Source: Elusimicrobiaceae bacterium
Lineage (GTDB): Bacteria > Elusimicrobiota > Elusimicrobia > Elusimicrobiales > Elusimicrobiaceae
Length of the DNA: 48,530 nucleotides
Assembly: GCA_017534965.1 (NCBI GenBank)
Contig: JAFXVA010000015.1
Location: 1-48,530, forward strand
Direction: 5' to 3'
Shown here: positions 18,919 to 40,100 of the stretch, in pieces
How the letters are laid out: each line of letters opens with the position of its first letter
Numbering within the stretch: position 1 is the stretch's first letter
The notes under the pieces: generated by a model
Told to the model about the DNA's origin: nothing
Seen by the model: only the letters and a program-made list of their open reading frames with translations
Database searches by the model: none
Position numbers and translations under genes: made by a program

Positions 18919-18946
18919 ATAATTGAACTTTAAGTCAAAAATCTAT

Positions 18947-18984
18947 GGGCCTTTAGACCTAGTAAAAAGTGGGTCTAAAGGCTC
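18947..18984 (+). promoter_or_regulatory. Hairpin/palindrome before giant gene 1
   Basis: An 11-bp perfect stem (18949-18959 with 18972-18982), extendable to 13 bp with one G-U, encloses a 12-base loop and ends two bases before the -35 box. It could terminate the PAS-array transcript or act as an operator. A covarying copy lies before giant gene 2. Confidence 0.65.
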
Positions 18985-19013
18985 TTGTTATATATACATA
19001 AAATGCTTATCAT
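18985..19013 (+). promoter_or_regulatory. Sigma70-type promoter of giant gene 1
   Basis: TTGTTA (18985-18990), 17 bases, TATCAT (19008-19013). The expected start, near 19020, leaves a leader of about 11 bases with AGGGA at 19022-19026. This short leader rules out the longer in-frame start at 18923. Confidence 0.75.
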
Positions 19014-19030
19014 ATAAGTATAGGGAAACT

Positions 19031-22000
19031 ATGGCTTTCATAAACAATAAATATAAACAAAACATGAATATAATAAGCGGAAAAAATTTTTTAAAAAAGG
19101 GTGTAAATATAATTATAGCCCTTATTATGTTATTTAATTTAACTTCTCCCATACTAGCAGTTCAAAACAATATAAAACAACAAAAAGAAGAACAAATATT
19201 TAAAGAATTAAATAAAACTTTAGAAGTAGAATATAAAAAGAAAGCAGAACCTTCTACAGAAGACATAATAGATTTATGCCTAAAAAAGAATAATAAGGCA
19301 AAGTGTAGCGAATATGTAAATTTAACAGAAGCTCTTTTTTTAGAAGCTGTAGATAAATCAGAAAAAGAACAAGGCAAAGTAAATAACAAAGAAGAAGAGT
19401 TTTTGCCTATATCTAAAAAAGAATATCTCAAACAACTAGCCCAAAATACACAAGAAGAATATAAAAATAAAACAGCGGAAATAGAAGAAGAATTTAAAAA
19501 ACAAAATCAAAAAGTAGAGCAAGAATATAAAAACATAAATATTAAGTCTAAAGACTATGCCAAGTATGCTTTTAAGAAATCAGATTTAAACAATTGGAAA
19601 AAAGAAAGTTTGTCGGATTTAGCTGCTTGGAAAAAAGATATCTTATCAAACGGCCAATATTATTACGACGAATATCTAAAAGAATTTGAAAAGAAAAAAG
19701 CAGAATACGAAGCAGACAGAGAAGAAGTTTTTAATGCTTATCTAAGGGAGATGGCTACAAATCTTATAGCAATATATGATAAAAAGGCCCCTTATTCTAA
19801 ATTAAAAATGACTAATCTGTTGGTTGTTTTATTATCAACAGAAACAGAAAAATCAAAAATTTTTACAAAAGAACAAAGAAGCAAAGTTTATAGATTTTTA
19901 AAAGAGATAGTTTCACCCAATGGCTTAGAATCACGTAATCCGTGTCGTTTTCATTTAAGACAAAGAACGGAAGCAGAATTAGATGCGCATAAGGCCTATC
20001 GTGATCACTTACAAAGAATAGAAGAACAAACCCAAGGGACTCTTTCAGCACGGGATCAAATAGCAAAACAAAGCCGTCCCTTTGAACAAAGCATTTTAAA
20101 TGAAACAAAAGCTCCTATTTTAGATTTTGTAGATGAAGATGCCTGCCAAGCAGCATTTTCTGCTTTAAACGGCTTATCCTTTTTTAAAGGTTGGGATATG
20201 TCAAATGTGGCAATGTTTATGCTACAAAACAGCTCTGAACCAATAGCAGACCAAGCTTTGCTTATGGGAGCAAAAACCTTAATAGAAACAAACAGATTAG
20301 ATTATTTCTATGTGTTACAGAGTAATCTTGTAAGAGAAGCAAATAAACATGTAGAAGAAGATTTAAAATTCAAAGAAAAAATGTTCTTTAATGACAGATT
20401 TTATAGAACACCTTATATTTATTCTCGTTACACACAAGAAAATGGCGGCGGTGATGCTTGGCAAGATATAGCCAAAATGCTTTCCAAAGAAAAAACTTCT
20501 TTAAGTAAACAAGTTCAGCAACTGATATTAGACCATTCTGTTTATTTCTCAAGTAGCCCCAATTATTCAAAAACTCAAATTTATTTTAGACATAATATCC
20601 CGTTTATATATGGCCTTTTAATAAATAACCCTGGGATAATAGATAATTTTGTGCCTAATAGCGCAATTTTTGACGAAGAGGCCGCAAAAGGATATTCTTA
20701 TAAAGGACACCCAATATTTATTCAATATTTTGATGACCGGGCAGATCTCTTTATAAAAGATTCAGAGAAAGGTAATTTTTATCTTGCAGATCATCTTGAC
20801 CTATACTATGATGACGGAAGCGGCTATGCAACTATAAAAGTAGGAGCTTTACGCAAAAACATATTTGAAAACTATAAAAAACATAAAGGAACAAGTATAG
20901 CAGAATATAAAAAATATATAGCTTCAAAGAACTTAAAAGCTTCAGCCGTATATGCTCAGGCCTTTTATGAGGCAGACTTCGTAGATTTAACATTAGAAGA
21001 AAAATTGGCCCTAGATGCTGCTTTGGAAAAGAAATATCCTCATCTTAAAAAAATAAGTAAAAATCATAAAGCGAAATTAGCAAAACACAGAGATAACTTA
21101 AATTTAACAACAGGCATTGTAAATATCATAGATGTAGGTTTAACTTTGTGGTGTGTTACGGATATTTATAAAGCTTTTAGATGGGGCGCAAAAGGTATAA
21201 AGGCCTTAAGAACTTTAATTACGGCAGGGAAAACAACGGCCTCTTTTTCAACTGCCAGAAAAATGGCTTTCTTTAGAAATTTAATAACGGAAAATAAAAG
21301 AGTTTTATCAGTTCATAGAAACTTAAAGAAAATAAAAAGTATTGAAAGCAGAATTGTAAATAAATTCCCTACTTATAGAAGGATGAAAGCTCTTTCCTAT
21401 CTAGCCGAAAAGAACGGAATGAATACCATAAATTATATGGTTCATAATATGGCCTATAATGAAGGTAAAACTCTAGCCCGTAGAGGTAAGGTTTTAAAAG
21501 TAGAAGGAAGCACAGAATTTTTTAGTAATAAGCATTATGTAGCAGGAAAACATAAAGATATTTTTAGAGTAAAGAAAGATGTAAAAAGAGCCGGGGAAAT
21601 AGGCGTTAGCGAACTTGGAGAAGGGGGGCAAGTTGTAAGTTATATAGATAAAGCAAAAGTAAAGATATTTAAAGATTATACCGATGATTTTATAAAAGGA
21701 CAAGAAGGAGTTTTAAGAGAAGAAGCAAAATTACTACCTAGCACAGAAAAGAATAGGCCAAATTATAAAAATATGCTATCTTCCAGCAAAGAAACAACCT
21801 TGTTGCCAAGAGAATATTTATACGATGAAGAATACTCTAAAATATTACCTTTTGCTCAAGATAGAAACTATACTCAGGCCTTTAAGATAGGCGATGAGGC
21901 CTATGCAGGGTTAAGAAAAGAAGGGTATTATGTAATGAATACCTCAAGTGGGGAAGTGTTTAATGATTTTGCCTTCCACTTTGACGGCTATTTAAACAAA

Positions 22001-25000
22001 AATAATTTTCTTGGTGGGTTAATTGTTCCTTCTAAAAATTTTGCCGGAACTAAAACTGCCACAAAAGCCGGAGACTTTTTTGCACAAGAATCTTCTTTAT
22101 TATCGGTTTTAAACCCACAGACAAATTTATTTATTCCCGGATTAAATACTTTAAGCAGGGCCACAAATCCTTTAAAGATATTAACCCCGACAACACTTTT
22201 TACTCCTAAAATACCTAAATTATCTTTATATTTTGAGAATGTCTTCCTTGGAACAAAATTATTTAATCTCAAACTTAATAATTTAAGAAAACCAACAGAA
22301 ATTATAACTAGACCTAATACTTTAGCAAGTAAAGATAGAACTTTTATTCCAGGGGAGCCTTTTCCGGAAATAAAGGCAGAACCTAACTATAGTGAGTTTG
22401 ATGATAAAGAAATGCAGCCTGTAATTATGGCGATAAACTTAAATATCCTTCTTGAAGAACTTAGAAAATATGCTGAAAAAACTATTTTAACAGATCACGA
22501 AATTACCCTTTATAATAATATCGCAAATAATATTTATAAGGTGTTAGATAATCTGCCGGAGGCCCATAGTAAATATATGGCAGCTTTGGAAGATACAGAT
22601 TTCTTTACCGGCAATATTCCTTTAATAACTTTTGAAGGGACAAATGTCGAAACGATAAGACCTGCAACTATAGAAGGGGATGTTCTTGTTTATTCCTTAG
22701 CCGGAAAAGAGAATTATAAAAAATTTATTGCTGATAAAATAAAACATCTTTCTTCTTTTGGTAAAGAATACACTATTTATCTTTCTATGCACGGAGATAA
22801 AAATGCAAAATTGGCTATTTCTCATAATACTTATACTTCTCTAAATGAAATATTGGATATAGTAGCAAAAAATAAAGGCAAGGAAACTGTCAATATTATT
22901 ACTTCTGCCTGTCATAGCGGAGCAGCTTTAAGCACGGGTTTAGCAAGAGAGGGAATAAATGTTTTACTTCTAAGTGGGCGTAATGATCTTTGTTATACAA
23001 GTGATATGCAATTTGTAAAGATAAATGATTTGCGTTCTTCCTATGTGGAAGCCGTAAGGAACAGATATTATGGTTCTTATTTAATATATGATGGGAAATT
23101 TTTTAATACTTTAGTTGATGCTAATTCATATTTAGAAAAGGGGGATAAGAGAAAAGAAGAATTATCCTTACTTAGACAAATGTATTTTAAAGAAAATATT
23201 TTTGGCGATATTATTTATCAACTTTTAATTAATTTTCCTAATCATTTTAAAACACCCTTTTTGCCTTTTATTAAGTTATATTACTTAAATATCACGCCCA
23301 GTGTTTTCAATCCTATCTATAATATTTATGAACACTTAGATGATTATGTGCATATTTTAGACCCTATAAAACATCAGTGGGAATATGTCGTAAATAGTTA
23401 TGATAAATCGGGCGCTTTAAAAAAACAGGAATCAGTTGTTATTGAAGAAGGTAATAGCGAAATTAATAATTTTTTAACAGATATCGCTCAAAAAGAATTG
23501 AAAAATAATTTCCCTAATTGGAATTATATTGAACAAAAAATACCTTTCCAGAGGAGTTTTCCTTTATATCCACATACGGATGATGAGTTTTTACACCTAA
23601 ATAGTTTACCTAAATTAAAAAAAGATTTTCCTGTAATTCCCACGCAACATCTTAAAGAGAAAAAGGCCTTTATAATAACGAAAATAAATAAAAATATAGA
23701 AAGATTAAAAGATTTAGATTTATCTTCTTTAAGCAGTAAAAAAATAGAGGCCTATCAGGAAGTCTTTAATGCTGTAAAAGAAATTGCCAAAGCTCCTTCT
23801 AAAGCAACGATACCGCAACTACAGCATATTGAAAAAATGTCTTATTTGCTTAATATGGATAAACCGGTTTTGATTCTTAAAGGAGAAGATTTAAACATCC
23901 TTTTACCGGGGCATATCCCTTCTAATAATTTCCGTATATTAAATTTATCAAAAGAAATGAACCATAAGCAAAGAATTGGCATGGAAATAAAAGATTTTGC
24001 CAAAGTTTTTGATAAATTTACTGTTTGGGTAGATATGCATGGCTCTGTAGAAGGGTCTATACTCGTTTCTAAAATTAATGGGGTAAAATCTTATACAAGA
24101 ATTGCCGAAATTGTAAGAATAATAGAAGCTAATAAAGCGGGCAGTAAAGTTGATTTGATTTCAGCCAGTTGTCATGGCGGGGCAGGTTTTATTTCAAGAT
24201 TCAAAGATAGTGATATAAATATTTTAATTTTGAGCGGCACCAATGAGGTTTGCTATCAAACAGATAAAAGCTTTTTGGTTATAGATAATTTACCCGAAAC
24301 TTATTTGAATGCTGTAGAAGCAGGAAGATACGGCTCTTATTTGATTTATAATGGTAAGGTTTATAATCCTCTTCAAGATGCTTTAAAAAAGGCAAAAGGA
24401 AATGAAGAATTATCTTCAGAACTAGGAGTTTTGGGAGATATTTTCCTTAGAAAAGACTCTTTTGGAACAGAACTTGGTAAAAACATTTTTAAACTTTTGG
24501 TAAATTTTGAAAATTATAGACTTAATACTAAGTTTGAAAATTTTGAACTTACAAAATTTAACAAATTAGATCTCTTAAAGGATTATGAAATACCTTTTGT
24601 TTTCAATCCGATATTAAAAGAAAATACTTCCGCTTCTTCTTATTTAACTAAGAGAAACGGCAATTGGAAGTATGTTTTTAGAACTTTTGACAAAAAGAAT
24701 AATATAAGTTTAGAGAAGGGTGTTTCCTTTAATAAATTAAATAGTGAAACTGCTGATTTTATTTATGAAAGTAGCAGAAAGAGATTTCCCGGAATAAAGA
24801 AAGAAACATCTAATTTAGTAGAACCCAAAGGCCAACCTAATGATTTAATTTTAATCAAAACTCCTAAAACTATTACAAAATTGTTTAAAGATTACGGGTT
24901 AGAAGATAATTTTGCCGGCAGACTTGCCAATGTTTGTTTTGAAGGAGAAAAAGAAAAATATAATCCTGTAATTTTAGAAAAAATTAAGGAGTTTTTAGTT

Positions 25001-28000
25001 GCCGGAGTAGAGCCAAAATATATAGATAATATGATTGTTGCTCTTTCTGATAGTAATGGCTTTTCTTTAGATCTTTATAATAGGGCAATAGCTTTACATA
25101 AAAAACATAATATACCTTTACCTTTAAGTGCTTATTTTGTGAATACGGGGCTTTCTGTAACAGGATATGATCCTGAAATTTATGATGCCCTTGATAAATT
25201 ATTGGAAAACAATTTTGATTTTGCGAAAACAAAAACTTCTTGGGATGCTTTGGTGGCCTCTAAATTATATGAAAAAGAAATAACTACTTTGGGTATTGAA
25301 AAAGTGGATATTCTATCGGCCTTTTCTAAAGGCGGAAGAGATTTTGATGTGGATGCTTGGAATAATTTAATTTATATCTCTAAACAAACAGAAGGGGAAT
25401 TTAGTTCTTTTCATTATGCTATGCACTATTATCTTGGTAAGGATGAAATATTAAAACAAATGCCGGATATTATTGGTGTAGAAAATGTTGCCAAAGCTCT
25501 TAAAGAAAATTATGTTCGCTATAGTTATGTGTTTCCAAATTTACAAAAAGTAATCGGGGCAGAAAATATGCCTTTGTTAAAAGAGCAAATTGCCAATATG
25601 CCTTTAGAAAAGCAATTAGAAATAATAAATACGTTTGCAGCTATGATTAATGTCAGAGAGACAATTTTAAGCCCGGTAGAAAAGAAAAAATTAATAGAAA
25701 AAATTTCTGATCCTCAGGCCTATAAAGAACAAGTAAACCAAATCGTATTTAGAAAACTTGGCTGGGACTATAGTGATGAGTTAGGCAAAATATTTGATTT
25801 TTCTTCTAATAAATATCTTATGCATATTTTAAATTCTCAAAATAAGTTTTATGTCAATTTGAATTTGCTTTATCAAATCATAAGGGATAATCAGGGTAAA
25901 TCTGTAAGCCAAATTCTTGATGAATTACCGGAAAATAAAAAGTTTGCCGAAATGTGTGCCGAACGGGGCATAGATTATCAGGCCTGGCGCAGTTATGATC
26001 CTAAAGATTATATAACAAGAAAAGTGCTAATTAACGGCGGAAAAGAACCTATAACAAGGATGCCGATTACGGTTCGTAAAGTTAATATGGATAATATTCC
26101 GCAAGCTTTGATTACAGGTAATGAATCAAGATCTTGCAGAAGTGTAGGCCGCGGAATTTGTGGCGAGGCATCCCCTAATTTAATAAGAAACAAAATGGTT
26201 CAACAAGTTGAAATTGTAGTAGAGGGCAGGGCTGTTGGAAATGCTTTAATTTATCTTGCAGAGGTTGACGGGCAAACTTCTATAGTAGTTGGTTCTTTTG
26301 TTAAAAAACCGCCTTATTTTTCTTATGAAATAACAAGACTTGTGCTTGATTATGTTAGACATATAAGGGACTCTGTTACAAATAAAAATATACCTATTTA
26401 TTACAGCAATTTTCTTCCGATAAATAATCATTATAAATTCCCTCTTATAGAACATCAAGTTATGTTAATTGGAGATGGTTTTAATGAAATATTTAATAGT
26501 TTTACCCATCAGTTTGTTATGCCTTATACAAAGCAAGTGGATAAAGTAAAACTTTTTACTATTGATAGTCCTAAACCTTTGAAAAAAGATGATCTTTCTA
26601 AAGAAGATATACTTGCTATTTATGCTAAGAAAAATGTCTCTTCAGAAGAGGCCGGACAAGCTCTTTTAGAACTTTGTTTTGAAGGCGATCATAAAATTTT
26701 TAACCCTGATGTCTTAGAAGCAGAAAAATATTTGCTTGATATGGAAATAGACCCCCGTTTTGTAAAAGCAATAATGGAAAAACTTTCTATTAATGGTTAT
26801 TTTTCTAAAGAATTATATGATAAAACTTTAGAATTTGCTGATAAATACTCTATTAGTAAACTTACAGCTGCTGATTTAATAGGGCATTGTGTTGAAGAGG
26901 GGAAGTTTAGCCCTAAAATTTATAGTAAACTTGGTCTCTTATTTAAGGATAATACGATAACTTTTTCAAAAGTGAGTTTTTTAGAAAATTGTAAAATTAA
27001 TGGCGTTTTTAGAGAAGATTTGTTTGATAAAGGCTTAAAAGTAAGCAAAGTATTTGATAGATACACACCTCAAATAATTGCTGATTTTACAGACGCTCAG
27101 GGCAATTTTAATGAGGAATATTTTGAGGCCGTTTATGAACTTCTTATAAGAACGCAAGATCTTTTTGCGACACGCTATGATGCTATTAAAACTTATGTCC
27201 TTTCTAGTGATGTTATTCAAAATGCTTTTGATTTGTTGGGAACAGAGATGACTATAAAATATATTTCCTTAAACAAAGATCGTTACTTAAATATTTTTGG
27301 TAATATCCTTGATTCCATTGATAAAGGAAATATGGCACTTTTAAAAGAAAAACTTGCTCCTTTACCTGAAGTGGAAAAAATAAAAACTATAACTATGCTT
27401 GCCGGGACTGTAAACAAAAAGAACAGTGTTTTAGGTAAAAAGGGTATAACGGATTTAATAAATAAGGTTTCAGAGCCGGAAGTTTTTAAAGAAGAAATAA
27501 ATCGCCTTGCTTTTAAACAACTGGGCTTGGAATATTCTGAGGAAATGGCAAAAATATTTGATTTTGCCTCTAGCAAATATATTTCCCGTATTTTAGAGGG
27601 TAATGCTCCCTTTGATAACCATTTGAAGAGTTTATTTGAATCTTTAAAAGCCAATATAGATAAACCCATACACCAAAATTTTGACCTTATACCTGAAAAT
27701 CAGGCCTTTGCCAAAATCTGTGCTGAAAACGGCATAAATTATCAAGCTTGGCGCAGTTATGACCCCAATGATTTTATTGCAAGGAGTGTTTTAGTAAACG
27801 AGGGTCGCAGTCCTATAACAAGAGATAATCTTCTTGTGCGCAAAGTGGATATGGATAATGTAATAAAAGCACTTACCAGCGGTAATGAGTCGGGTGCGTG
27901 CAGAGCTGTTGGCAGAGGTGTGTGTAAAGATGCTGCCCCCGAACTGGTTAAAAATAAAATGGTTCAGCAAATTGAAATCTTGCGCGGGAATATAGTTGTG

Positions 28001-31000
28001 GGAAATGCTTTAATTTATCTTGCCAAAGTTAACGGCGAAGTTTCTATTGTTATAGGTTCTATAATAAAAAAGAGTCCGCGTTATATTTCCACGGAAATAA
28101 ATGATCTTGTGGCTGATTATGTTCGCAAAATCCGCCAAGATATTGGCAGACCCGATATTCCTATTTATATGAGCAGTTATCTTAAAGTACCAAATCCTTA
28201 TTCTCAGGATTGGGATAATGTCGTTCTTCTTGGAAGCGGCGATAAGAAAATATTTAACAGCTTTACCCATAGCTTTGATGTGCCCTCTATGAATAAAACA
28301 AACAGAGTCTTATTATATCAAGTAGATGAAGGCCTAAAAGGGCAAGGTGATTATGTTAATACGGATTATTCTTCTAAGCCGACCAAAAAAGATATGTTAG
28401 CGCAAACAGCCCAAAAAATAGAAGAAAAATCTTATCAAGATGCCGTAAGAAAGGTAAAAAATCAAATCAAAAAAGCGGGTATTAAATCTGCCGGGGCTTT
28501 GGCTATTTTGTGCTTTGAGGGGGAAGAATTAACTTTTAATCCTGCTGTTTTAGAAACAATAAAAGATCTTGCCAAAAAAGATATTGAAGGCGTTTTTATA
28601 ATTGAGATGATAAAAGCCCTTTCCCCAAATAATCATTTTGAGCCGAAACTTTATGAAAAAGCTTTAGAGTTATATAAAACTAATCACAATATGAATGAAA
28701 GTATCAAAATGATTAAGGGTTCTATGGAAAAGGGGGTTTTTAATCCTAAAATTTTAGAGAAATTTCAAGAATTGCAGGGGTATTATTTCCCGCTTTCGGA
28801 ATATGACTTTATGAAAGCCTGTTTTGTAAACGGCTTTTTTAGAGAAGATTTATATGATAAAGGAATAAGCATCGCTAAAGAATTTACCAGCAGCACGCCT
28901 GAAATTTTAAAACTTTGTAAGACTGAGGAAGGCGCTTTTGACGATAAACTTTTTGAAAATTTTGTAACTTTAGCAAAAAATACTGCCAAAAGTTTCAGTT
29001 TTGAAGATCCCTTGCTTGAATATCTTATTGCCGGTGAGGGTATTAAATTTTCCCTTGAAGTTATTGGCGTTGAAAATACGGCTAAAGCAATCAATTTAAA
29101 TAAGGCGCGCTATAAAAATGTATTTCTTAGTCTTGCTGATAATATCTATAAAGAAAACATAGCCTTGTTAAAAGCCCAACTCGAACCTTTGCCTTTAGAA
29201 GAAAAATTATCTGTTCTTAACCAGTTATCAGGTATTTTAAATAAGGAAAAAATACCTTTAACAATACAAGAAGAACGCGAGATTATTAGCCAAATTTCCG
29301 ATAAAGAAAAATTTAAAGAAACTATTAACCGCCTTTCTTTTAAATATTTTGGCTTTGATTATATGCCAAGCCTTGCAAAAATATTTGATTTTTCAGGAAA
29401 CAGATATTTGCCACTTTTATTTAAGGGAAATAATAAATTTAATCTTGATTTTAAAAGAATTTATACCGAAATTAAACAACTTCTAACAAAATCTTTAAAA
29501 CAAGGCGAGCCAAAAAATATACACCAACTTTTTGATGAAATACCGGAAAATAAGGCCTTTGCTAAAATCTGCGCAGAACGGGGTATAGATTATCAGGCGT
29601 GGCGCAGTTATGATCCAAATGATTTTATTAAAAGAGATGTTTTAATTAGAAGCAATAATGCCTCTACAACCAAAAAAGAACTTATAGCCCGTAAAGTAGA
29701 TATGGATGAGGTTATAAAAGGGCTAACAACCGGTAATGAATCAAAAGCCTGCAGAGCCGTTGCCTCAGGTGAAAATTGCGAAGCCGGCCCCGAACTTGTA
29801 AGAAATAAAATGGTTCAACAGGTGGAATTATTGGATAATAAGGAACCGGTTGGTAATGTTCTAGTTTATCTTGGCGAAGTTAACGGGCAAACTGCTATTG
29901 TAATGGGAACTATAATGAAAAAAGGGGTTTATGACACCCACGAAATTGATGAACTTTTTATAGATTATGTAAGGGCTATGCGCAGTAAAATAGGGCGTCC
30001 TGATATACCAATTTATATGAGTAGAATTTTTTCTATTGATAATGTAAAAAAATATCCCGTAAAAGACTATCAGGTTAAATTGCTTGGCTCTGGAAATAAT
30101 AGAATTTTTAATAGTTTTGCCCATGAGTTTGAAGTTCCTTCAGATAGTAAGGTTAATACCATTGAACTTTATAAAGTAGATGAAGGCCTAAAAGGGCAAA
30201 ATGATTTTGTTAATACGGCATATCCTGGAGCAAATAATATTTCTTCTAATAATTCTTTATTACCTGTAAATTTTAATTTTTTAGATAAATTAAAATTTTT
30301 GACTAGCCCTGTTTTTAAAATTAAAGTTTTTAAAGGGCCAGAAGCGCTAAGGAAAAGAGGCACAGGTTTTTATATAAAATACCGCAATTTTCCTTTTATT
30401 CTAACAGTTGGGCATTTGTTTAAAGATGCTGATTTAAACAATATCAGAGTTTATAATAATTTAGGTTTTAGCGAAAAGGCGGAATTATTAAATATCAGTG
30501 ATAAATCCGATTTGGCTGTTTTGGCCTTGCCGCAAGGCGTTTTAGACCGCTTTACTCCGTGGACTTTATCTTTAAAAGAACCAAGAGTTGGAGATGATTT
30601 GCTTTCAATCGGTTATCCTAAAGCAAAAATTAAAAAAACAAGTAAAGTGGAACTTTTAAGTAGGGATATGTATCTTACCAGCCCAGAGAGAAACGGAAGT
30701 ATTTTTTATCAGCATGAACAAGGGAAAATTTATCTTGGGGCAAGTGGCAGCCCGCTTAGTAATATAGCAACACCAAAAGAACTTGTTGGGGTTAGCTGTG
30801 CTGTTAATGAAAAGGCCCATAAAGCAATAAGCGTGCCTTTGCCTCAAATTAGAACTTTCCTTGGCGAAACTATTAAAAAAATTCTTTTTACACCTGATTT
30901 AAGCTCAAAATTTTTGCCCTTATATCCCGCTTTTGCCAAAAATTATGAAAATGTTGTAAATAAATTTATTTATCCTAGTGAACTTGCAAAAAAACCATCT

Positions 31001-34000
31001 GAAAAAGTAAAAGGAACTTTAACTAAAAAAGAACAAAGTATACGATTAAAGAGAAGGATTCCTGAATATTTTTTAACAAGTCCGGGGTATTTTAGAGGGA
31101 TGGAGCTTAATTCTTTAGAAGAATTAGAAACAATTTTAAAAGAAGGTCTGCCTGTATCTAAAACAAGTTTTGATGGTGTTTATTTTACTCCTGATATAGG
31201 ATTAGCTTTTATTTATGCTGATAATAATGGTGTTAAAGAGAGAATTTCTGTTTTATTAAAGAATATCAATTATAAGGAACTTACTCCTATTAATCCGCCG
31301 GCGGAATATGCTTCCACAAGGGATGTTTTACCTAAAGAAATAGGTGATGTTATAGTTTGGACTACTATTGACGGCAAAGAAGGTTGGTATAAGGCAATTT
31401 TAGATGAAAAGAATAAACTTACTTTAGTTTATGGTGATGAAGTCCAGACCCAAATTCCGACACAAGAACAGCAAGTAGAAACTTCTTGGTTGGCTAAATT
31501 AAAAACAAAAATAGCAGCAAAAAGAACTGCCGCCTATAATAAAAATCCAAAAAATAAAGCGGAATTTTATCTAAAAGAAGCCAAGGCGGCCTACGAAAAA
31601 GAAAACCTTGATTTAGCGGAAGATTATTATAAGCTGGCTATAGCTCAAGATCCTAATAATGCCAAATATTATCATGAACTAGGCAGATTTTATGATGATG
31701 TCTATATTGATAAGTATTATCAAAATTTAGCATTAGAAAACTATAATAAAGCAATATCCCTAGACCCTAAAAATGGTGAATATTATTATTCAAGGGCTCT
31801 TCTTAAACAATATTTATTAAAAGATACTCCCGGTGCTATAAATGATTTAGCTATGAGTATGAAATATGGAATGAAAGGATTTCACACTGAAAGTTTATTT
31901 AAAGAATGGACCGAAGATTATATAAAGAGTCAAAAATCTTTCCAAAGCCAGACTTTAAAACCTAATTTTGAGCCAACAGCAATGGAAACAGATTATATTC
32001 CGACATCTTATACCGGCGCAAAAGAAAAACCGCCACGCAATAAGGCCTCTTTATATGAAAATAGCGATGCTATAAAAGGGAAAAGTGATTTTGTTGATAC
32101 AGCATATCCTATGGAAGCTGAAGCGCTAAATAAAACTTCTTTATTTTTTGTAAATGAAGCTTCATATGCGGATGTTTTTAAATATATAAAATCTACTCCT
32201 GTAAAATGGACAGAAAAAACAGCAGAAAATTGGTTAAAAGAACAAGGTTTTTCCAAAAATGATATAAATGATGTTCTTAGAGCATGCTATAAAGGAAAAG
32301 ATTTTAATTCTGATATCTTTGAGCTATTTGTTAAAGGTTATAAAATAAAACCCGATAAATCTTTATCTATCATGGCACTTTCTTATTCTTTAGGAAACAA
32401 TTTGTTAAGTTATTTTTCAGAAATCGGTGCTTTTAATTATCAAAAATATTCAAAAATTTATACTATTGCTAAAAGAGCGCCTCAAATTAATTTTGGTGCT
32501 ATTATAGATTATCTTGATGCAACGCCGGAGCAAGTTGAAGCTTTGTGCTATGCGGCAGAGAATTTTCCGGATGTAAATCCCACTGAAATTATGGATCTTG
32601 CCACTACTGCAAGTTTGTATTTTAAAACGAATAATTTTAATTTCGGAAATTATGAAAGAATTATAAATTGGCTAAAGGAAGGAATATCTTTTGATTCTAT
32701 AAAAAAGATTTTTGAAACTTGTTTAACTAAAAACTACACTATAGATGAAAAAACTTTTAGCAAAATTGATAAAATTGCCAAGGTTGCTATTACAAAAAGA
32801 AATAATTTTTTACCTGCCAAATATCGTAACCAAATGAATGATGTAACTATCAAAAACTTTATTTATCATTTGGCTCCGGAGATACTAGAATTTTTGGAAC
32901 TTACAGATGAAGCAACTTTAATTGCAGCTATGGACTATAAGATGGATAAATTTGAAGATTTTGTTAACGCCGGAGCTATGTTGAGAGATAATTTCCGTGG
33001 AGCTTATAATTCAGAAGTAAAAGAGCAGTTCTTTGAAATTTTTTATCCTGAAAAAAGTAAAAAGGCACAAGAATTAGAGAGTAAAATTTCAGAGTTAAAA
33101 AGCCGTTTTTCTGATACTCCAGCAAGTGAACTTCAGAATTTAAAAAATGAAATTAACACCTATACAAGACAATTAAGAAATTTAATTGAACAAGGAAAAG
33201 AGTTTTCTCCTCAAGAAAAAATTGAAATGATAGCTATTATGAGTCGGTTTGATGGCTTTGAGTTAGAAGAATTGCTTGAGAGTGTAAAGCAAGTAAAAAC
33301 TGATGGAATAAAGGTGTGGAATAAAAAAATATTTGATTCGCTTGTTTCGTCTTTAGGTCCTAAATATAATATGAGAGTAGAAGAGAAATTACATCTTTTG
33401 CAAAGCCCTTATTTAAGACATTTTTTTAGATCTATTTATAACAAAGTTTCCTTCGGGGACCGATTTTATGAACTTTTACCGCTTTTATCCGGTGAAGATT
33501 TTGGCAAAGCTTTAGATACTTTACCTCATAATATAGCGACTAAAGAAATTTTTGATAAATATAATCTTGATTATCAAAAATATACAAATCCGAAAGTTTT
33601 CCCTTCCGAAACTTTTTATGAAAGCAATAATCTGGTAGAAATAAGACAAGTTGATATGAGGGATATTTCTAAAAGTTTATTCTTAGGTAATGAATCAGGG
33701 GCTTGCTGTGCTATGGGGGGAACTCATCCTGAATATGCAGTGCCTTATATTACAAATACTTTTGTCGGTGCAATAGAAGTTCTCGTCAATGGCAGATCCG
33801 TTGGTAATACTATGATTTATCCTATACTTGTTCTAGGAGACAAAGGACAAGAAATTGCCTTGTTAATTGATGATTTAAAAATTAAATCCCCTTATAATCA
33901 ACATAAATATTTACAAAAGGTTGTTGGGGTTGCTAAAGATATAGCAAAAAATATTGGTATTAAAAATGGCAAAGTTTATATTTCCGATGCTACTATTCCG

Positions 34001-34156
34001 GATTATGAAAAAAGTAAATTAGGTACAGATACAAGATTTTATTTAATAGGTGAAAGTGGTGATTCTATTTGGTTAAACGCTATTTATAATACTTCTCAGG
34101 CAGGTTCTGAGTCAACCTATAAGGTAACTTTGGTTCCTTGTGAAAAAATAAAATAA
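19031..34156 (+). CDS. Giant secreted multidomain protein 1 (caspase-like x2, trypsin-like, repeats)
   Basis: About 5041 aa. Start: ATG 19031, downstream of its promoter. Order by residue: signal peptide 1-43 (cleavage near ILA); Lys/Glu-rich helical region with conserved cysteines to about 690; hydrophobic stretch 692-715; conserved unknown block 790-990; two clan CD peptidase-like units, 1129-1505 (His1254 in MHGD, Cys1294 in ACHSG) and 1544-1926 (His1670 in MHGS, Cys1714 in SCHGG). Next come three tandem ~600-aa modules at 1940-3720, each with G-I-x-Y-Q-A-W-R-S-Y-D-P and a G-N-E-S-x-x-C-R box. Then a trypsin-like domain 3760-3950 (His3795, Asp3827, Ser3905 in GASGSP), a possible ADP-ribosyltransferase-like segment 4015-4135 (Arg4022), TPRs 4165-4296, and a C-terminal module 4370-5041 shared with giant 2. 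No LPXTG, S-layer or autotransporter signal was seen. The function is unknown; an exported proteolytic or interaction role is inferred. Confidence 0.85.
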   Translation: MAFINNKYKQNMNIISGKNFLKKGVNIIIALIMLFNLTSPILAVQNNIKQQKEEQIFKELNKTLEVEYKKKAEPSTEDIIDLCLKKNNKAKCSEYVNLTEALFLEAVDKSEKEQGKVNNKEEEFLPISKKEYLKQLAQNTQEEYKNKTAEIEEEFKKQNQKVEQEYKNINIKSKDYAKYAFKKSDLNNWKKESLSDLAAWKKDILSNGQYYYDEYLKEFEKKKAEYEADREEVFNAYLREMATNLIAIYDKKAPYSKLKMTNLLVVLLSTETEKSKIFTKEQRSKVYRFLKEIVSPNGLESRNPCRFHLRQRTEAELDAHKAYRDHLQRIEEQTQGTLSARDQIAKQSRPFEQSILNETKAPILDFVDEDACQAAFSALNGLSFFKGWDMSNVAMFMLQNSSEPIADQALLMGAKTLIETNRLDYFYVLQSNLVREANKHVEEDLKFKEKMFFNDRFYRTPYIYSRYTQENGGGDAWQDIAKMLSKEKTSLSKQVQQLILDHSVYFSSSPNYSKTQIYFRHNIPFIYGLLINNPGIIDNFVPNSAIFDEEAAKGYSYKGHPIFIQYFDDRADLFIKDSEKGNFYLADHLDLYYDDGSGYATIKVGALRKNIFENYKKHKGTSIAEYKKYIASKNLKASAVYAQAFYEADFVDLTLEEKLALDAALEKKYPHLKKISKNHKAKLAKHRDNLNLTTGIVNIIDVGLTLWCVTDIYKAFRWGAKGIKALRTLITAGKTTASFSTARKMAFFRNLITENKRVLSVHRNLKKIKSIESRIVNKFPTYRRMKALSYLAEKNGMNTINYMVHNMAYNEGKTLARRGKVLKVEGSTEFFSNKHYVAGKHKDIFRVKKDVKRAGEIGVSELGEGGQVVSYIDKAKVKIFKDYTDDFIKGQEGVLREEAKLLPSTEKNRPNYKNMLSSSKETTLLPREYLYDEEYSKILPFAQDRNYTQAFKIGDEAYAGLRKEGYYVMNTSSGEVFNDFAFHFDGYLNKNNFLGGLIVPSKNFAGTKTATKAGDFFAQESSLLSVLNPQTNLFIPGLNTLSRATNPLKILTPTTLFTPKIPKLSLYFENVFLGTKLFNLKLNNLRKPTEIITRPNTLASKDRTFIPGEPFPEIKAEPNYSEFDDKEMQPVIMAINLNILLEELRKYAEKTILTDHEITLYNNIANNIYKVLDNLPEAHSKYMAALEDTDFFTGNIPLITFEGTNVETIRPATIEGDVLVYSLAGKENYKKFIADKIKHLSSFGKEYTIYLSMHGDKNAKLAISHNTYTSLNEILDIVAKNKGKETVNIITSACHSGAALSTGLAREGINVLLLSGRNDLCYTSDMQFVKINDLRSSYVEAVRNRYYGSYLIYDGKFFNTLVDANSYLEKGDKRKEELSLLRQMYFKENIFGDIIYQLLINFPNHFKTPFLPFIKLYYLNITPSVFNPIYNIYEHLDDYVHILDPIKHQWEYVVNSYDKSGALKKQESVVIEEGNSEINNFLTDIAQKELKNNFPNWNYIEQKIPFQRSFPLYPHTDDEFLHLNSLPKLKKDFPVIPTQHLKEKKAFIITKINKNIERLKDLDLSSLSSKKIEAYQEVFNAVKEIAKAPSKATIPQLQHIEKMSYLLNMDKPVLILKGEDLNILLPGHIPSNNFRILNLSKEMNHKQRIGMEIKDFAKVFDKFTVWVDMHGSVEGSILVSKINGVKSYTRIAEIVRIIEANKAGSKVDLISASCHGGAGFISRFKDSDINILILSGTNEVCYQTDKSFLVIDNLPETYLNAVEAGRYGSYLIYNGKVYNPLQDALKKAKGNEELSSELGVLGDIFLRKDSFGTELGKNIFKLLVNFENYRLNTKFENFELTKFNKLDLLKDYEIPFVFNPILKENTSASSYLTKRNGNWKYVFRTFDKKNNISLEKGVSFNKLNSETADFIYESSRKRFPGIKKETSNLVEPKGQPNDLILIKTPKTITKLFKDYGLEDNFAGRLANVCFEGEKEKYNPVILEKIKEFLVAGVEPKYIDNMIVALSDSNGFSLDLYNRAIALHKKHNIPLPLSAYFVNTGLSVTGYDPEIYDALDKLLENNFDFAKTKTSWDALVASKLYEKEITTLGIEKVDILSAFSKGGRDFDVDAWNNLIYISKQTEGEFSSFHYAMHYYLGKDEILKQMPDIIGVENVAKALKENYVRYSYVFPNLQKVIGAENMPLLKEQIANMPLEKQLEIINTFAAMINVRETILSPVEKKKLIEKISDPQAYKEQVNQIVFRKLGWDYSDELGKIFDFSSNKYLMHILNSQNKFYVNLNLLYQIIRDNQGKSVSQILDELPENKKFAEMCAERGIDYQAWRSYDPKDYITRKVLINGGKEPITRMPITVRKVNMDNIPQALITGNESRSCRSVGRGICGEASPNLIRNKMVQQVEIVVEGRAVGNALIYLAEVDGQTSIVVGSFVKKPPYFSYEITRLVLDYVRHIRDSVTNKNIPIYYSNFLPINNHYKFPLIEHQVMLIGDGFNEIFNSFTHQFVMPYTKQVDKVKLFTIDSPKPLKKDDLSKEDILAIYAKKNVSSEEAGQALLELCFEGDHKIFNPDVLEAEKYLLDMEIDPRFVKAIMEKLSINGYFSKELYDKTLEFADKYSISKLTAADLIGHCVEEGKFSPKIYSKLGLLFKDNTITFSKVSFLENCKINGVFREDLFDKGLKVSKVFDRYTPQIIADFTDAQGNFNEEYFEAVYELLIRTQDLFATRYDAIKTYVLSSDVIQNAFDLLGTEMTIKYISLNKDRYLNIFGNILDSIDKGNMALLKEKLAPLPEVEKIKTITMLAGTVNKKNSVLGKKGITDLINKVSEPEVFKEEINRLAFKQLGLEYSEEMAKIFDFASSKYISRILEGNAPFDNHLKSLFESLKANIDKPIHQNFDLIPENQAFAKICAENGINYQAWRSYDPNDFIARSVLVNEGRSPITRDNLLVRKVDMDNVIKALTSGNESGACRAVGRGVCKDAAPELVKNKMVQQIEILRGNIVVGNALIYLAKVNGEVSIVIGSIIKKSPRYISTEINDLVADYVRKIRQDIGRPDIPIYMSSYLKVPNPYSQDWDNVVLLGSGDKKIFNSFTHSFDVPSMNKTNRVLLYQVDEGLKGQGDYVNTDYSSKPTKKDMLAQTAQKIEEKSYQDAVRKVKNQIKKAGIKSAGALAILCFEGEELTFNPAVLETIKDLAKKDIEGVFIIEMIKALSPNNHFEPKLYEKALELYKTNHNMNESIKMIKGSMEKGVFNPKILEKFQELQGYYFPLSEYDFMKACFVNGFFREDLYDKGISIAKEFTSSTPEILKLCKTEEGAFDDKLFENFVTLAKNTAKSFSFEDPLLEYLIAGEGIKFSLEVIGVENTAKAINLNKARYKNVFLSLADNIYKENIALLKAQLEPLPLEEKLSVLNQLSGILNKEKIPLTIQEEREIISQISDKEKFKETINRLSFKYFGFDYMPSLAKIFDFSGNRYLPLLFKGNNKFNLDFKRIYTEIKQLLTKSLKQGEPKNIHQLFDEIPENKAFAKICAERGIDYQAWRSYDPNDFIKRDVLIRSNNASTTKKELIARKVDMDEVIKGLTTGNESKACRAVASGENCEAGPELVRNKMVQQVELLDNKEPVGNVLVYLGEVNGQTAIVMGTIMKKGVYDTHEIDELFIDYVRAMRSKIGRPDIPIYMSRIFSIDNVKKYPVKDYQVKLLGSGNNRIFNSFAHEFEVPSDSKVNTIELYKVDEGLKGQNDFVNTAYPGANNISSNNSLLPVNFNFLDKLKFLTSPVFKIKVFKGPEALRKRGTGFYIKYRNFPFILTVGHLFKDADLNNIRVYNNLGFSEKAELLNISDKSDLAVLALPQGVLDRFTPWTLSLKEPRVGDDLLSIGYPKAKIKKTSKVELLSRDMYLTSPERNGSIFYQHEQGKIYLGASGSPLSNIATPKELVGVSCAVNEKAHKAISVPLPQIRTFLGETIKKILFTPDLSSKFLPLYPAFAKNYENVVNKFIYPSELAKKPSEKVKGTLTKKEQSIRLKRRIPEYFLTSPGYFRGMELNSLEELETILKEGLPVSKTSFDGVYFTPDIGLAFIYADNNGVKERISVLLKNINYKELTPINPPAEYASTRDVLPKEIGDVIVWTTIDGKEGWYKAILDEKNKLTLVYGDEVQTQIPTQEQQVETSWLAKLKTKIAAKRTAAYNKNPKNKAEFYLKEAKAAYEKENLDLAEDYYKLAIAQDPNNAKYYHELGRFYDDVYIDKYYQNLALENYNKAISLDPKNGEYYYSRALLKQYLLKDTPGAINDLAMSMKYGMKGFHTESLFKEWTEDYIKSQKSFQSQTLKPNFEPTAMETDYIPTSYTGAKEKPPRNKASLYENSDAIKGKSDFVDTAYPMEAEALNKTSLFFVNEASYADVFKYIKSTPVKWTEKTAENWLKEQGFSKNDINDVLRACYKGKDFNSDIFELFVKGYKIKPDKSLSIMALSYSLGNNLLSYFSEIGAFNYQKYSKIYTIAKRAPQINFGAIIDYLDATPEQVEALCYAAENFPDVNPTEIMDLATTASLYFKTNNFNFGNYERIINWLKEGISFDSIKKIFETCLTKNYTIDEKTFSKIDKIAKVAITKRNNFLPAKYRNQMNDVTIKNFIYHLAPEILEFLELTDEATLIAAMDYKMDKFEDFVNAGAMLRDNFRGAYNSEVKEQFFEIFYPEKSKKAQELESKISELKSRFSDTPASELQNLKNEINTYTRQLRNLIEQGKEFSPQEKIEMIAIMSRFDGFELEELLESVKQVKTDGIKVWNKKIFDSLVSSLGPKYNMRVEEKLHLLQSPYLRHFFRSIYNKVSFGDRFYELLPLLSGEDFGKALDTLPHNIATKEIFDKYNLDYQKYTNPKVFPSETFYESNNLVEIRQVDMRDISKSLFLGNESGACCAMGGTHPEYAVPYITNTFVGAIEVLVNGRSVGNTMIYPILVLGDKGQEIALLIDDLKIKSPYNQHKYLQKVVGVAKDIAKNIGIKNGKVYISDATIPDYEKSKLGTDTRFYLIGESGDSIWLNAIYNTSQAGSESTYKVTLVPCEKIK
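22415..23545 (+). repeat. Clan CD peptidase-like unit A of giant 1
   Basis: Residues 1129-1505. A helical lead-in is followed by the His-Gly strand (YTIYLSMHGD, His1254), then NIITSACHSG (Cys1294), then LLLSGRNDLCY and YGSYLIYDGK. His-to-Cys spacing is 40. Together with the next unit it forms a tandem pair; limits are approximate. Confidence 0.7.
23660..24808 (+). repeat. Clan CD peptidase-like unit B of giant 1
   Basis: Residues 1544-1926. Same layout as unit A: VWVDMHGS (His1670), DLISASCHGG (Cys1714, spacing 44), LILSGTNEVCY, YGSYLIYNGK. The catalytic pair is kept though the sequence has diverged clearly from unit A. Limits are approximate. Confidence 0.7.
28322..28345 (+). repeat. 24-bp direct repeat, copy 1 (linker motif DNA)
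   Basis: Identical over 24 bases to 30176-30199. It encodes V-D-E-G-L-K-G-Q at the end of module 2 of giant 1. Such identity in otherwise diverged modules marks a recent exchange or strong constraint. Confidence 0.8.
30176..30199 (+). repeat. 24-bp direct repeat, copy 2 (linker motif DNA)
   Basis: Second copy of the 24-base repeat, at the end of module 3 and directly before the trypsin-like cassette. A third, diverged copy of the linker motif (K-G-K-S-D-F-V-D-T-A-Y-P) is at about 32077-32112, after the cassette. Confidence 0.8.
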
Positions 34157-37102: not shown

Positions 37103-37140
37103 GGGACTTTAGGCCTAGAAAAAGGTGGGTCTAAAGTCTC
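37103..37140 (+). promoter_or_regulatory. Hairpin/palindrome before giant gene 2
   Basis: Arms 37105-37115 and 37128-37138 (11 bp, one G-U; 13 bp if extended) enclose a 12-base loop and end two bases before the -35 box. Arm differences from the copy at 18947-18984 are compensated on the other strand, so pairing is conserved. Confidence 0.65.
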
Positions 37141-37169
37141 TTGTTATTTCAGACGAAAAACCCTATCAT
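37141..37169 (+). promoter_or_regulatory. Sigma70-type promoter of giant gene 2
   Basis: TTGTTA (37141-37146), 17 bases, TATCAT (37164-37169), the same layout as giant gene 1. The expected transcription start coincides with the ATG at 37176, so a leaderless mRNA is predicted. Confidence 0.75.
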
Positions 37170-37175
37170 ATAAGT

Positions 37176-40100
37176 ATGGGGAAACTCTTATTAAAAATAT
37201 CTAAAAAAATAACAGCACTTGGGCTTGTGCTGATATTATTATTTAATATTAGTAGCGAGGCCTTTGCCGCTTTAACTCTGCCCCAAAATGAAGAGCTAGC
37301 CCAAGAAATAAAATCTGTCTTACAGGAAACTTTTGCCGCGCAAGAAACAAGTAATTATAAAGAGTGCGTAAACAATAATTCTGTATCCGCTTGTCAAAAT
37401 TATCTAAGAGATCTTAAAGCCCAATTTTCCAAAAGTGTAACTAATGCACAAAAGAATAATACAACTATTGAAAGTAAAAAAAGTTATAAAGAATACGAAA
37501 AAGAATATAAACAGGCAATAGAAAAAGAATATCAAAGAGCTACTGAAGAAATAGAAAAAGAAATAAGACAGGCCTTGTGGTATAGCGATTTAAGCTTTGA
37601 TACTGCCAATCATTTAAACTATCTTGAAAAGCAAAGCAAAGAAGAGTTAAAAGCTTGGAAAGAAACAGAAGAAAAGAATATAAAATCCAGCTATGTTAAA
37701 TATGAAAAAGATTATCAAACTTGGCAAGCAAAAGAAGCTAAACTGCAAGAAGAGGCCGGTAAAAAATATTTAAAAGCAGAAGCAAAAAAAATAATAGCCG
37801 CCTATGAAGCAACTGATAATGTAAAAGTTAAAAGATTTGCCAGAGAATTATTAGTAGTTTTATTAAACAGCGAAGAAAAACCCGGCGAAATAATAGAAGA
37901 GCGTGCCAAAGTAGAACAAATACTACTTGCTGCTTTAGAAAATAGACCTTGTGCTACTACAATGGGCGGTAAAACCCTTACAAAAGAGGGGGCAGATAAA
38001 TATATCGGCTATGATAAACCGGGAGTCTATCCGAGTTTGACTAGAGAAGATTGGAACATAATAGAAGCCGGCTATAAAGATGTTGAGGCCTGCCAAAATG
38101 CTTTTATTGCTCTTGAAGGTTTAGGATATTTACAGGGCACCTCTCAGGCCGTATCAAAAGTAGAAAAATTTATAGAAGAAAATAGCAAAGATATTGCCGC
38201 AGGGGATAGTTTAATAAACGGCAGCGCAGTTTTGCTTAAATGGAAATCCTATCAAACTCTAAAAAAATATATAGCAAAACAATTTAGCCAAGAAAAAAAT
38301 AATGAAGGAAAGGGCGTTGGCGGCTTTGGCGGTATATCCGAAAAAGTGGCCTATAATGGCAATTATCTTGGTAATGTTTCTATTTGGACCCAAAGAGAAG
38401 ATGGCAGTAATGCTTGGGAAGATTTGGCAGATTTACTTGCTAGCGAAGGTAGCGCGCAAAGTAAAGAAATTTTAAAGAGTGCTGTAAGCAGTTGTAAAGT
38501 AGTAAAAGAAGTTTTAGGCAAAGATAAGCTGGAATGCCAAACGATAATGCCGTTTTTATATGGGGCTTTATTACATGCTCCAAAAGTAATGAATGAGGCA
38601 AAACCTTATCAGGAACCTATACCCCAATATAAAGAATATCTAGACGCGCAAGGCAAAGCAAGACAAGTAACCCAATCAGAAATAGACGGGATAAAACGTC
38701 GTAATGCTTATATAGAGAAAACCTTTAATGAAAAAATAAAAAGTTATGGGGCAAATATATCAAGTGGGCTGGCAGGCTTTTTATATAATTTAAAATTCAA
38801 TGATATGCCTGTAGATAAAAAGATGGCACTTGATAATAAACTTGCTAAAGTTTATAGCAATATTGCGCCATATACTAAAGGCAGTGCAAGATACACCAAG
38901 TTAAAAACAAACAGAGCCGTTGTTTCAATTTTTAAATATGTAGGTATAGCAATAGATGTCGTTCTTACCTTTACATTGGTGGGAGATATTGCCAAAGGGG
39001 CACTAGGAGCAAGTGCGCTGGTTCGTGCAAAGAATTTATTGAAAGGGAAAAATGCTTTAAGTATAGCCCAAAGAGCAAATATCTTGCGCCAAGTGGCCTT
39101 TATAAGGGAAGGTTTTAAATTAAGAAGATTCGGGCGTAATTTTACCGCAGGTATAGTAAATAGTGCTAATATCGGCAGAAAAATCAATGCAAGTGCGTAT
39201 TTAGCCCAAAAGAACGGGATGAATCCGATAAACTATATGCTACACAATATAGCATATCAGCGTGGTAAAAATATTGTTCTTAGAAATAATATTTTAAGAG
39301 TGGAAGGAAGCAGAAATTTCTTTAACAGCAACCATTATATACCCGAAGTTCACGGCGATATCTTTAGAATAACCAGAGATGTTAAAAGAGCAAGTAAGAT
39401 AGGGGTAAAAGAACTTGGAGAAGGCGGGCAAGTTTTAAGTTATATAGATAAAGCAAAAATAAATATTTTTAGAGATTATACAAGAGATTATATAAAAGGG
39501 CAGGAAGCAGTATTAGGCAGTGCTCAAGCAAGCAAAGCGGAAGTAATGAGCGGGCAAACAAAGTTACTGTCAAGAGAATATTTATATAGCAGAAAATATA
39601 AAGATATTTTACCCTTTGCCCAAGACGGACAATTTAGCGGAACTTTTAAGGCCGGAGATAAAATCTATGAAGGGTTAAGAAAAGAAGGGCTTTATGTTAT
39701 AAATAAAGAAACAGGGGAAGTATATAACGATTTTAGATTTAATTTTGATGGTTATTTAAATAAACATAATTTGCTTATCGGCAGAGAACTTGGCATAAGA
39801 AAGCCAAAAAATCTTGTCTTAAGCAAAGTAATAAATTCGGGAGAAAAAGCTAATTTTGCGCAAAATATTAGTTTGATTAAAGAGCCAAGTTCTTTAATAG
39901 TTCCTTCTTTTGTTAATAATAATACGACGCTTGCTTTAACTGTGGGAACACCTTTTATCCCGAGTATTTCCACTTTATTAAGCCCTTTTTATGCCTTGAA
40001 TATTAAAAATAATTTTTCCTGGTTAAATACAAAAATATTAGGTAAAGATGCTTTGACGGAATATGTGGGGGAAACTTTTAAAGCTGAATCTTTAAAACCT

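What the first reader, a model, noticed from the sequence alone, without database searches (positions are those of the whole stretch)
24848..30228. Threefold ~600-residue repeat with a conserved Cys-box alpha/beta domain of unknown function
Giant 1 has three successive copies, giant 2 one, and both C-termini carry a diverged one. The core is G-N-E-S-x-x-C-R/C, then N-K-M-V-Q-Q or N-T-F-V-G-A, V-G-N-x-x-I-Y and I-P-I-Y-M-S. Spacing of strands and helices is faintly reminiscent of a GNAT fold, but no acetyl-CoA motif is clear. The invariant Cys and Asn-Glu-Ser suggest a binding or catalytic site.
Basis: partly seen in the sequence, partly recalled or inferred. Interest (0 to 1): 0.65.

Follow-up and report, generated by a model that had tools for sequence, protein, structure and literature searches.

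The report
CoA-less acetyltransferase-like repeat in giant proteins
Two giant, probably exported proteins of an Elusimicrobiota bacterium carry six copies of a module built like an acetyltransferase that has lost the usual coenzyme-A loop and kept one invariant cysteine, an undescribed domain family that recurs in other giant proteins of the phylum.

Summary
Giant 1 (18923-34156, 5077 aa) has three successive ~600-aa repeats plus a diverged C-terminal copy; giant 2 (37125-46421, 3098 aa) has one plus a diverged C-terminal one. The box is less strict than stated: G and C are invariant, Asn-Glu-Ser is not. AlphaFold2 models (pLDDT 82 and 85) give a long helical scaffold and a C-terminal GNAT-fold domain. 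For the isolated domain all 50 listed PDB matches are GNAT-superfamily proteins (best NatD, Z 9.2). A profile comparison with real GNATs agrees in register (P=0.004; 0 of 150 shuffles). Relatives exist in four other Elusimicrobiota genomes, in open frames of 1,151 to 10,906 aa. Across the 15 copies G, C and a beta-2 Glu are invariant, Arg and Tyr nearly so; no second Cys is constant. An upstream Asn...Gly-Ile-Asp-x-x-x-Trp motif precedes every box scanned. No Pfam, NCBIfam or PHROG family covers it. Best reading: an exported, CoA-independent GNAT-fold module with a cysteine-centred site in giant, toxin-like or predation-like proteins that also carry caspase-like and trypsin-like domains. Catalysis is not shown.

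The parts
18923..34156 (+). Giant 1, 5077-aa open frame (likely true start ATG at about 19064, giving a signal-peptide-like N-terminus)
37125..46421 (+). Giant 2, 3098-aa open frame, paralogue of giant 1, signal-peptide-like N-terminus from about 37176
24815..26557 (+). Giant 1 repeat copy 1: helical scaffold + latch + Cys-box GNAT-fold domain (latch from about 25934; Cys codon 26135)
26588..28357 (+). Giant 1 repeat copy 2 (latch from about 27698; Cys codon 27899); AlphaFold2 model m5e5a4769a00a, pLDDT 82
28415..30217 (+). Giant 1 repeat copy 3 (latch from about 29549; Cys codon 29750)
32177..34153 (+). Giant 1 C-terminal diverged copy (latch from about 33530; Cys codon 33704); domain model mf390868f0073, pLDDT 85
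42612..44249 (+). Giant 2 internal copy (latch from about 43344; Cys codon 43824)
44451..46418 (+). Giant 2 C-terminal diverged copy (latch from about 45765; Cys codon 45939)
22511..23350 (+). Caspase-like (HG ... CHSG) domain 1 of giant 1
23771..24610 (+). Caspase-like domain 2 of giant 1, directly before repeat copy 1
40230..41069 (+). Caspase-like domain 1 of giant 2
41532..42371 (+). Caspase-like domain 2 of giant 2 (Cys in CYSG)
30359..30793 (+). Trypsin-like peptidase domain (Pfam Trypsin_2, E 7e-11) directly after repeat copy 3
31559..31804 (+). TPR repeats (weak Pfam matches, just below cut-off)

Best explanation
The repeat is a two-part module. A long alpha-helical scaffold ends in a conserved latch (N-x9-[GN]-[IL]-[DN]-x-x-x-[WY]), and after it comes a GNAT-fold alpha/beta domain. 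That domain has lost the acetyl-CoA pyrophosphate loop and instead keeps an invariant Gly-x5-Cys box in the alpha1-alpha2 loop, an invariant Glu in beta-2, and nearly invariant Arg (beta-1) and Tyr (beta-3). It sits in giant proteins with export signals, outside the CoA pool. I think it most likely works as a CoA-independent, protein- or peptide-handling domain whose cysteine lies at the acceptor-substrate side of the old GNAT cleft: as nucleophile or acyl acceptor in a transfer or hydrolysis reaction, or failing that as a substrate-holding thiol. The caspase-like and trypsin-like domains of the same chain would process the giant or act on the same target. Shown: repeat, fold (by model), conservation pattern, loss of the CoA loop, occurrence in giants. 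Inferred: export, site location, and the kind of chemistry.
For: Fold: the model of copy 2 has pLDDT 82.4; the model of the copy-4 domain has pLDDT 85.3, pTM 0.86, with strands and helices in GNAT order. All 50 listed PDB entries for the domain are GNAT-superfamily proteins, best NatD Z 9.2 over 157 residues; 49 of 50 for the whole repeat; Foldseek best E 1e-4, probability 1.00. Sequence-only profile comparison with 15 GNATs of related genomes: P 0.004, in GNAT register, 0 of 150 block shuffles as high, against P 0.19-0.37 for unrelated profiles. No R/Q-x-x-G-x-G/A between beta-4 and alpha-3 in any of 15 copies. C is the most informative column, with G and E also 15/15, R and Y 14/15; Cys is only 0.4-0.7% of these giants and no second Cys is constant. 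The latch precedes all 14 boxes scanned, with one stray match in about 29,900 aa. Signal-peptide-like starts in both window giants and in two distant relatives. Caspase-like neighbours, Trypsin_2.
Against: Z values of 8-9 are only a little above what unmatched models reach, and the profile P value is modest. The Cys loop is the least certain part of the domain model (residues 48-51 below pLDDT 50). No coordinates were available, so the distances between Cys, Glu, Arg and Tyr are unknown; a simple strand-pairing argument even allows Glu and Tyr to face opposite sides of the sheet. No His or Asp partner for a Cys nucleophile is invariant. Export rests on hydropathy of the N-termini only. No activity has been tested.
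Confidence: 0.45

Rival explanations
1. Non-catalytic GNAT-fold binding or scaffold module: the fold was kept as a peptide- or surface-binding repeat, and the Cys is structural, a metal ligand or an inter-module disulfide.
For: Tandem repetition within one chain on a helical scaffold is typical of adhesive or scaffolding repeats (background knowledge); there is no CoA loop and no invariant His/Asp partner. Giant proteins of a related phylum have been proposed as adhesins (PMC10066038).
Against: G, C and E invariant in 15 copies that are otherwise only 12-62% identical to copy 2 look like a site rather than packing; no constant second Cys in the domain for a disulfide.
Confidence: 0.3
2. True acyl- or acetyltransferase that uses an acyl donor in an unrecognised way (acyl-CoA, acyl-ACP, aminoacyl-tRNA), perhaps after delivery into a target cell.
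For: Fold neighbours are mostly GNAT enzymes; GNAT-fold enzymes with other donors exist (FemABX, LuxI, NMT; background knowledge, NMT also among the structure matches).
Against: The R/QxxGxG/A loop is absent from the beta-4/alpha-3 junction in all 15 copies; the R-x-x-G-x-[GA] strings found in five copies lie directly after the Cys or at other wrong positions. Export signals would put the protein away from cytosolic CoA, ACP and tRNA.
Confidence: 0.12
3. Distant relative of the PcfJ C-terminal domain (PF14284) rather than of classical GNATs.
For: A full-length BFVD match of the whole repeat was Brochothrix phage A9 gp163 (E 1.9e-3), a PcfJ protein. PcfJ has an E-G-x5-C box with the same Gly-to-Cys spacing ahead of its strands.
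Against: Profile comparison is at chance (P 0.23-0.43); gp163 is not among the 50 best for the isolated domain; no Pfam PcfJ match in any member.
Confidence: 0.08

Closest known systems
GNAT superfamily (GCN5-related N-acetyltransferases; nearest fold match NatD/NAA40, also RimI-like and aminoglycoside acetyltransferases)
   Same: Strand and helix order, coverage of nearly the whole domain, in-register profile match
   Different: No CoA pyrophosphate loop, invariant Gly-x5-Cys box in the alpha1-alpha2 loop, repeated on helical scaffolds inside giant proteins with export signals
PcfJ-like proteins (PF14284)
   Same: Gly-x5-Cys spacing at a similar topological place; weak full-length structure match
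   Different: Sequence profiles do not match; short domain; phage and plasmid proteins
Giant ORFs of Omnitrophota and Elusimicrobia (PMC10066038, PMC12057145)
   Same: Very long genes in the same part of the bacterial tree, few annotated domains, proposed surface or predation role
   Different: Those are described with adhesion, transmembrane or carbohydrate domains; this module is not mentioned in the passages I read
Actinobacterial giant toxin-like proteins (Zhang et al. 2012, PMC3482391)
   Same: One chain combining caspase domains with several repeated effector-like domains
   Different: Those carry ART and lethal-factor-like metallopeptidase domains; here the repeated domain is the Cys-box GNAT fold

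Membership tests
GNAT superfamily | Order b1-a1-a2-b2-b3-b4-a3-b5 with further strands | tested here: met
   DSSP of two models; structure matches
GNAT superfamily | Detectable sequence-profile relation to GNATs | tested here: met
   hhalign P 0.004 in register, 0 of 150 shuffles; weak, and no Pfam GNAT model hits
GNAT superfamily, CoA-dependent enzymes | R/Q-x-x-G-x-G/A pyrophosphate loop between beta-4 and alpha-3 | tested here: not met
   Absent there in all 15 copies; the strict motif (G/A/S at the end) is present in 8 of 15 real GNAT controls
GNAT superfamily, CoA-dependent enzymes | Binds acetyl-CoA and transfers an acyl group | not testable with these tools
   Needs protein
PcfJ (PF14284) | Match to the Pfam model | tested here: not met
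   No PcfJ hit in 15 members at E up to 10
PcfJ (PF14284) | G-x5-C box | tested here: met
   Same spacing in both; a short motif, weak alone
PcfJ (PF14284) | Profile-profile relation | tested here: inconclusive
   P 0.23-0.43
Peptidase C14 / caspase-like (neighbouring domains) | His-Gly and Cys dyad at conserved strand ends | tested here: met
   H, G, C invariant in 8 of 8; profile P 3e-4 with both residues in register, 0 of 80 shuffles

The most novel reading that the evidence does not exclude
A new class of GNAT-fold enzyme that has given up coenzyme A for a cysteine nucleophile (for example a transamidase, transacylase or peptidase) and is used as a repeated warhead in exported giant proteins.
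Probability: 0.2. Interest if true: 0.75.

Novelty: new variant of a known kind. Interest (0 to 1): 0.5.

Why it matters
Giant proteins of Elusimicrobiota and Omnitrophota have few recognisable domains, so their function is open. This gives one recurrent, foldable, alignable module with a defined putative site, small enough to express alone, and shows that the chain also carries caspase-like and trypsin-like domains. It makes the question of what these giants do testable on a 200-residue fragment.

Tried and rejected
Pfam, NCBIfam, PHROGs and PADLOC scans gave only chance-level matches for the domain; Biotin_carb_N at E 2e-5 is below its cut-off with no significant stretch and is rejected. Condensation-domain (NRPS) idea: no match in the genome. 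Viral contigs, phages and plasmids hold no detectable relative. Sequence search of PDB found nothing credible for the domain or the caspase-like domain. PcfJ was tested because of a BFVD hit and is not supported by profiles. The first caspase profile test had too few templates and was repeated properly. Literature searches for a CoA-less, Cys-containing GNAT or for PcfJ gave nothing useful.

Full report
Observation. The window holds two very long open frames, giant 1 (18923-34156, 5077 aa) and giant 2 (37125-46421, 3098 aa). The three tandem repeats start 588 and 617 residues apart and fill 24815-30217. Full-repeat alignment of eleven copies shows that the helical part is shared too, most weakly with giant 2's internal copy. 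The claimed motif needs correcting: only G and C are invariant in the box, and Asn-Glu-Ser fails in both giant 2 copies.

Source and spread. The window lies in a 1.32 Mb, 47-contig genome. The nearest named relative is the MAG Elusimicrobia bacterium UBA1174, whose contigs carry orthologues of both giants; giant 1's orthologue is followed by the same ABC-transporter pair and peptidase-like gene, giant 2's by the same dehydrogenase-like gene (gene names by eye). Of 59 other related genomes one has the domain; a phylum-wide search of 341 genomes adds four distant ones, in open frames of 10,906, 9,927, about 3,285 and 1,151 aa. So the domain is rare, patchy and found mostly in giant frames. The tree of 15 copies pairs most window copy types with their UBA1174 counterparts, so most of the duplication is older than the split; copies 2 and 3 of giant 1 and copy 2 of UBA1174 are unresolved.

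Fold. AlphaFold2 gave confident models for repeat copy 2 (590 aa, pLDDT 82.4) and for the C-terminal domain of giant 1 alone (201 aa, pLDDT 85.3, pTM 0.86). The first 390 residues of the repeat are almost all helical; the rest is an alpha/beta domain in GNAT order. Against the PDB every one of the 50 listed entries for the isolated domain is a GNAT-superfamily protein, headed by NatD at Z 9.2; Foldseek gives E 1e-4 and probability 1.00 to aminoglycoside acetyltransferases and similar values to a RimI-like protein. Because moderate Z values can mislead, I tested it by sequence alone: the 15-row profile against 15 ordinary GNATs from related genomes gives P 0.004 in the correct register, above all of 150 block-shuffled controls, while caspase and PcfJ profiles stay at chance.

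What is missing and what is kept. In GNAT enzymes the pyrophosphate of acetyl-CoA is held by R/Q-x-x-G-x-G/A between beta-4 and alpha-3 (background knowledge). At this place the 15 copies read for example KSPYNQHKYLQ, PPYFSYEITR, NSEYEKQSQHL, NPNFVNYNREI: an aromatic residue is kept but the loop is gone. R-x-x-G-x-[GA] strings do occur in five copies, in each of them directly after the Cys, which is a trap, since that is the alpha1-alpha2 region. The most informative column of the alignment is the Cys (15/15), followed by Arg in beta-1 (14/15), Glu in beta-2 (15/15), Tyr in beta-3 (14/15) and the Gly of the box (15/15). Cys makes up 0.4-0.7% of these giants and no other Cys in the domain is constant, so an intradomain disulfide cannot explain it. 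A second conserved element, N-x9-[GN]-[IL]-[DN]-[YWV]-x-x-[WY], lies 58-205 residues upstream of every Cys box scanned and has one stray match in about 29,900 residues (the pattern was written from these sequences, so its specificity, not its presence, is the evidence).

Company. Both giants have two caspase-like domains before the repeats, with His-Gly and Cys in register with Peptidase_C14 (P 3e-4), and giant 1 has a trypsin-like domain after repeat 3 (Trypsin_2, E 7e-11) and TPR-like repeats. Signal-peptide-like N-termini are present in both giants and in two distant relatives (hydropathy only). A comparable one-chain collection of caspase and repeated effector domains was reported for actinobacterial giants (PMC3482391), and giant genes are known to be common in Omnitrophota and Elusimicrobia (PMC12057145; PMC10066038).

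Interpretation. Fold and loss of the CoA loop I hold as well supported (about 0.9 and 0.8). That the Cys marks a functional site is likely (about 0.65); that it is catalytic is a guess (about 0.4). The most likely picture is an exported GNAT-fold module retooled for CoA-independent work on proteins or peptides, repeated for avidity or multiplicity and delivered with protease domains.

Noticed in passing
window 22511-23350, 23771-24610, 40230-41069, 41532-42371: Repeated caspase-like domains (HG ... SCHSG) not found by Pfam but in register with Peptidase_C14 by profile comparison (P 3e-4).
   Followed up: yes
window about 31250-31500 (giant 1): By eye an ADP-ribosyltransferase-like stretch (YFRGM ... 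GVYFTPD ... AFIYAD); not tested.
   Followed up: no
L001:1-60 and L002:1-60: Two UBA1174 contigs begin inside their giant genes with the same coding sequence (QKEGVFAHKVNEVA...), suggesting near-identical repeats between paralogous giants that broke the assembly.
   Followed up: no
L050 and L051 (10,906-aa ORF): A distant relative of the domain sits in a 10,906-aa protein that also carries two ARMT1-like damage-control phosphatase domains.
   Followed up: partly
L052:3-9857: The roughly 3,285-aa relative carries several HExxH-like stretches (HEIGEYEYL, HEISHSAQE, HESIHLLL), suggesting metallopeptidase-like domains; Pfam finds none.
   Followed up: no
G006:C9:5736-6500: A further 4,512-aa open frame with a caspase-like domain in the UBA1174-like genome.
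   Followed up: no
window 14602-18918: A 1438-aa protein that looks by eye like a chain of PAS sensor domains, just upstream of giant 1.
   Followed up: no
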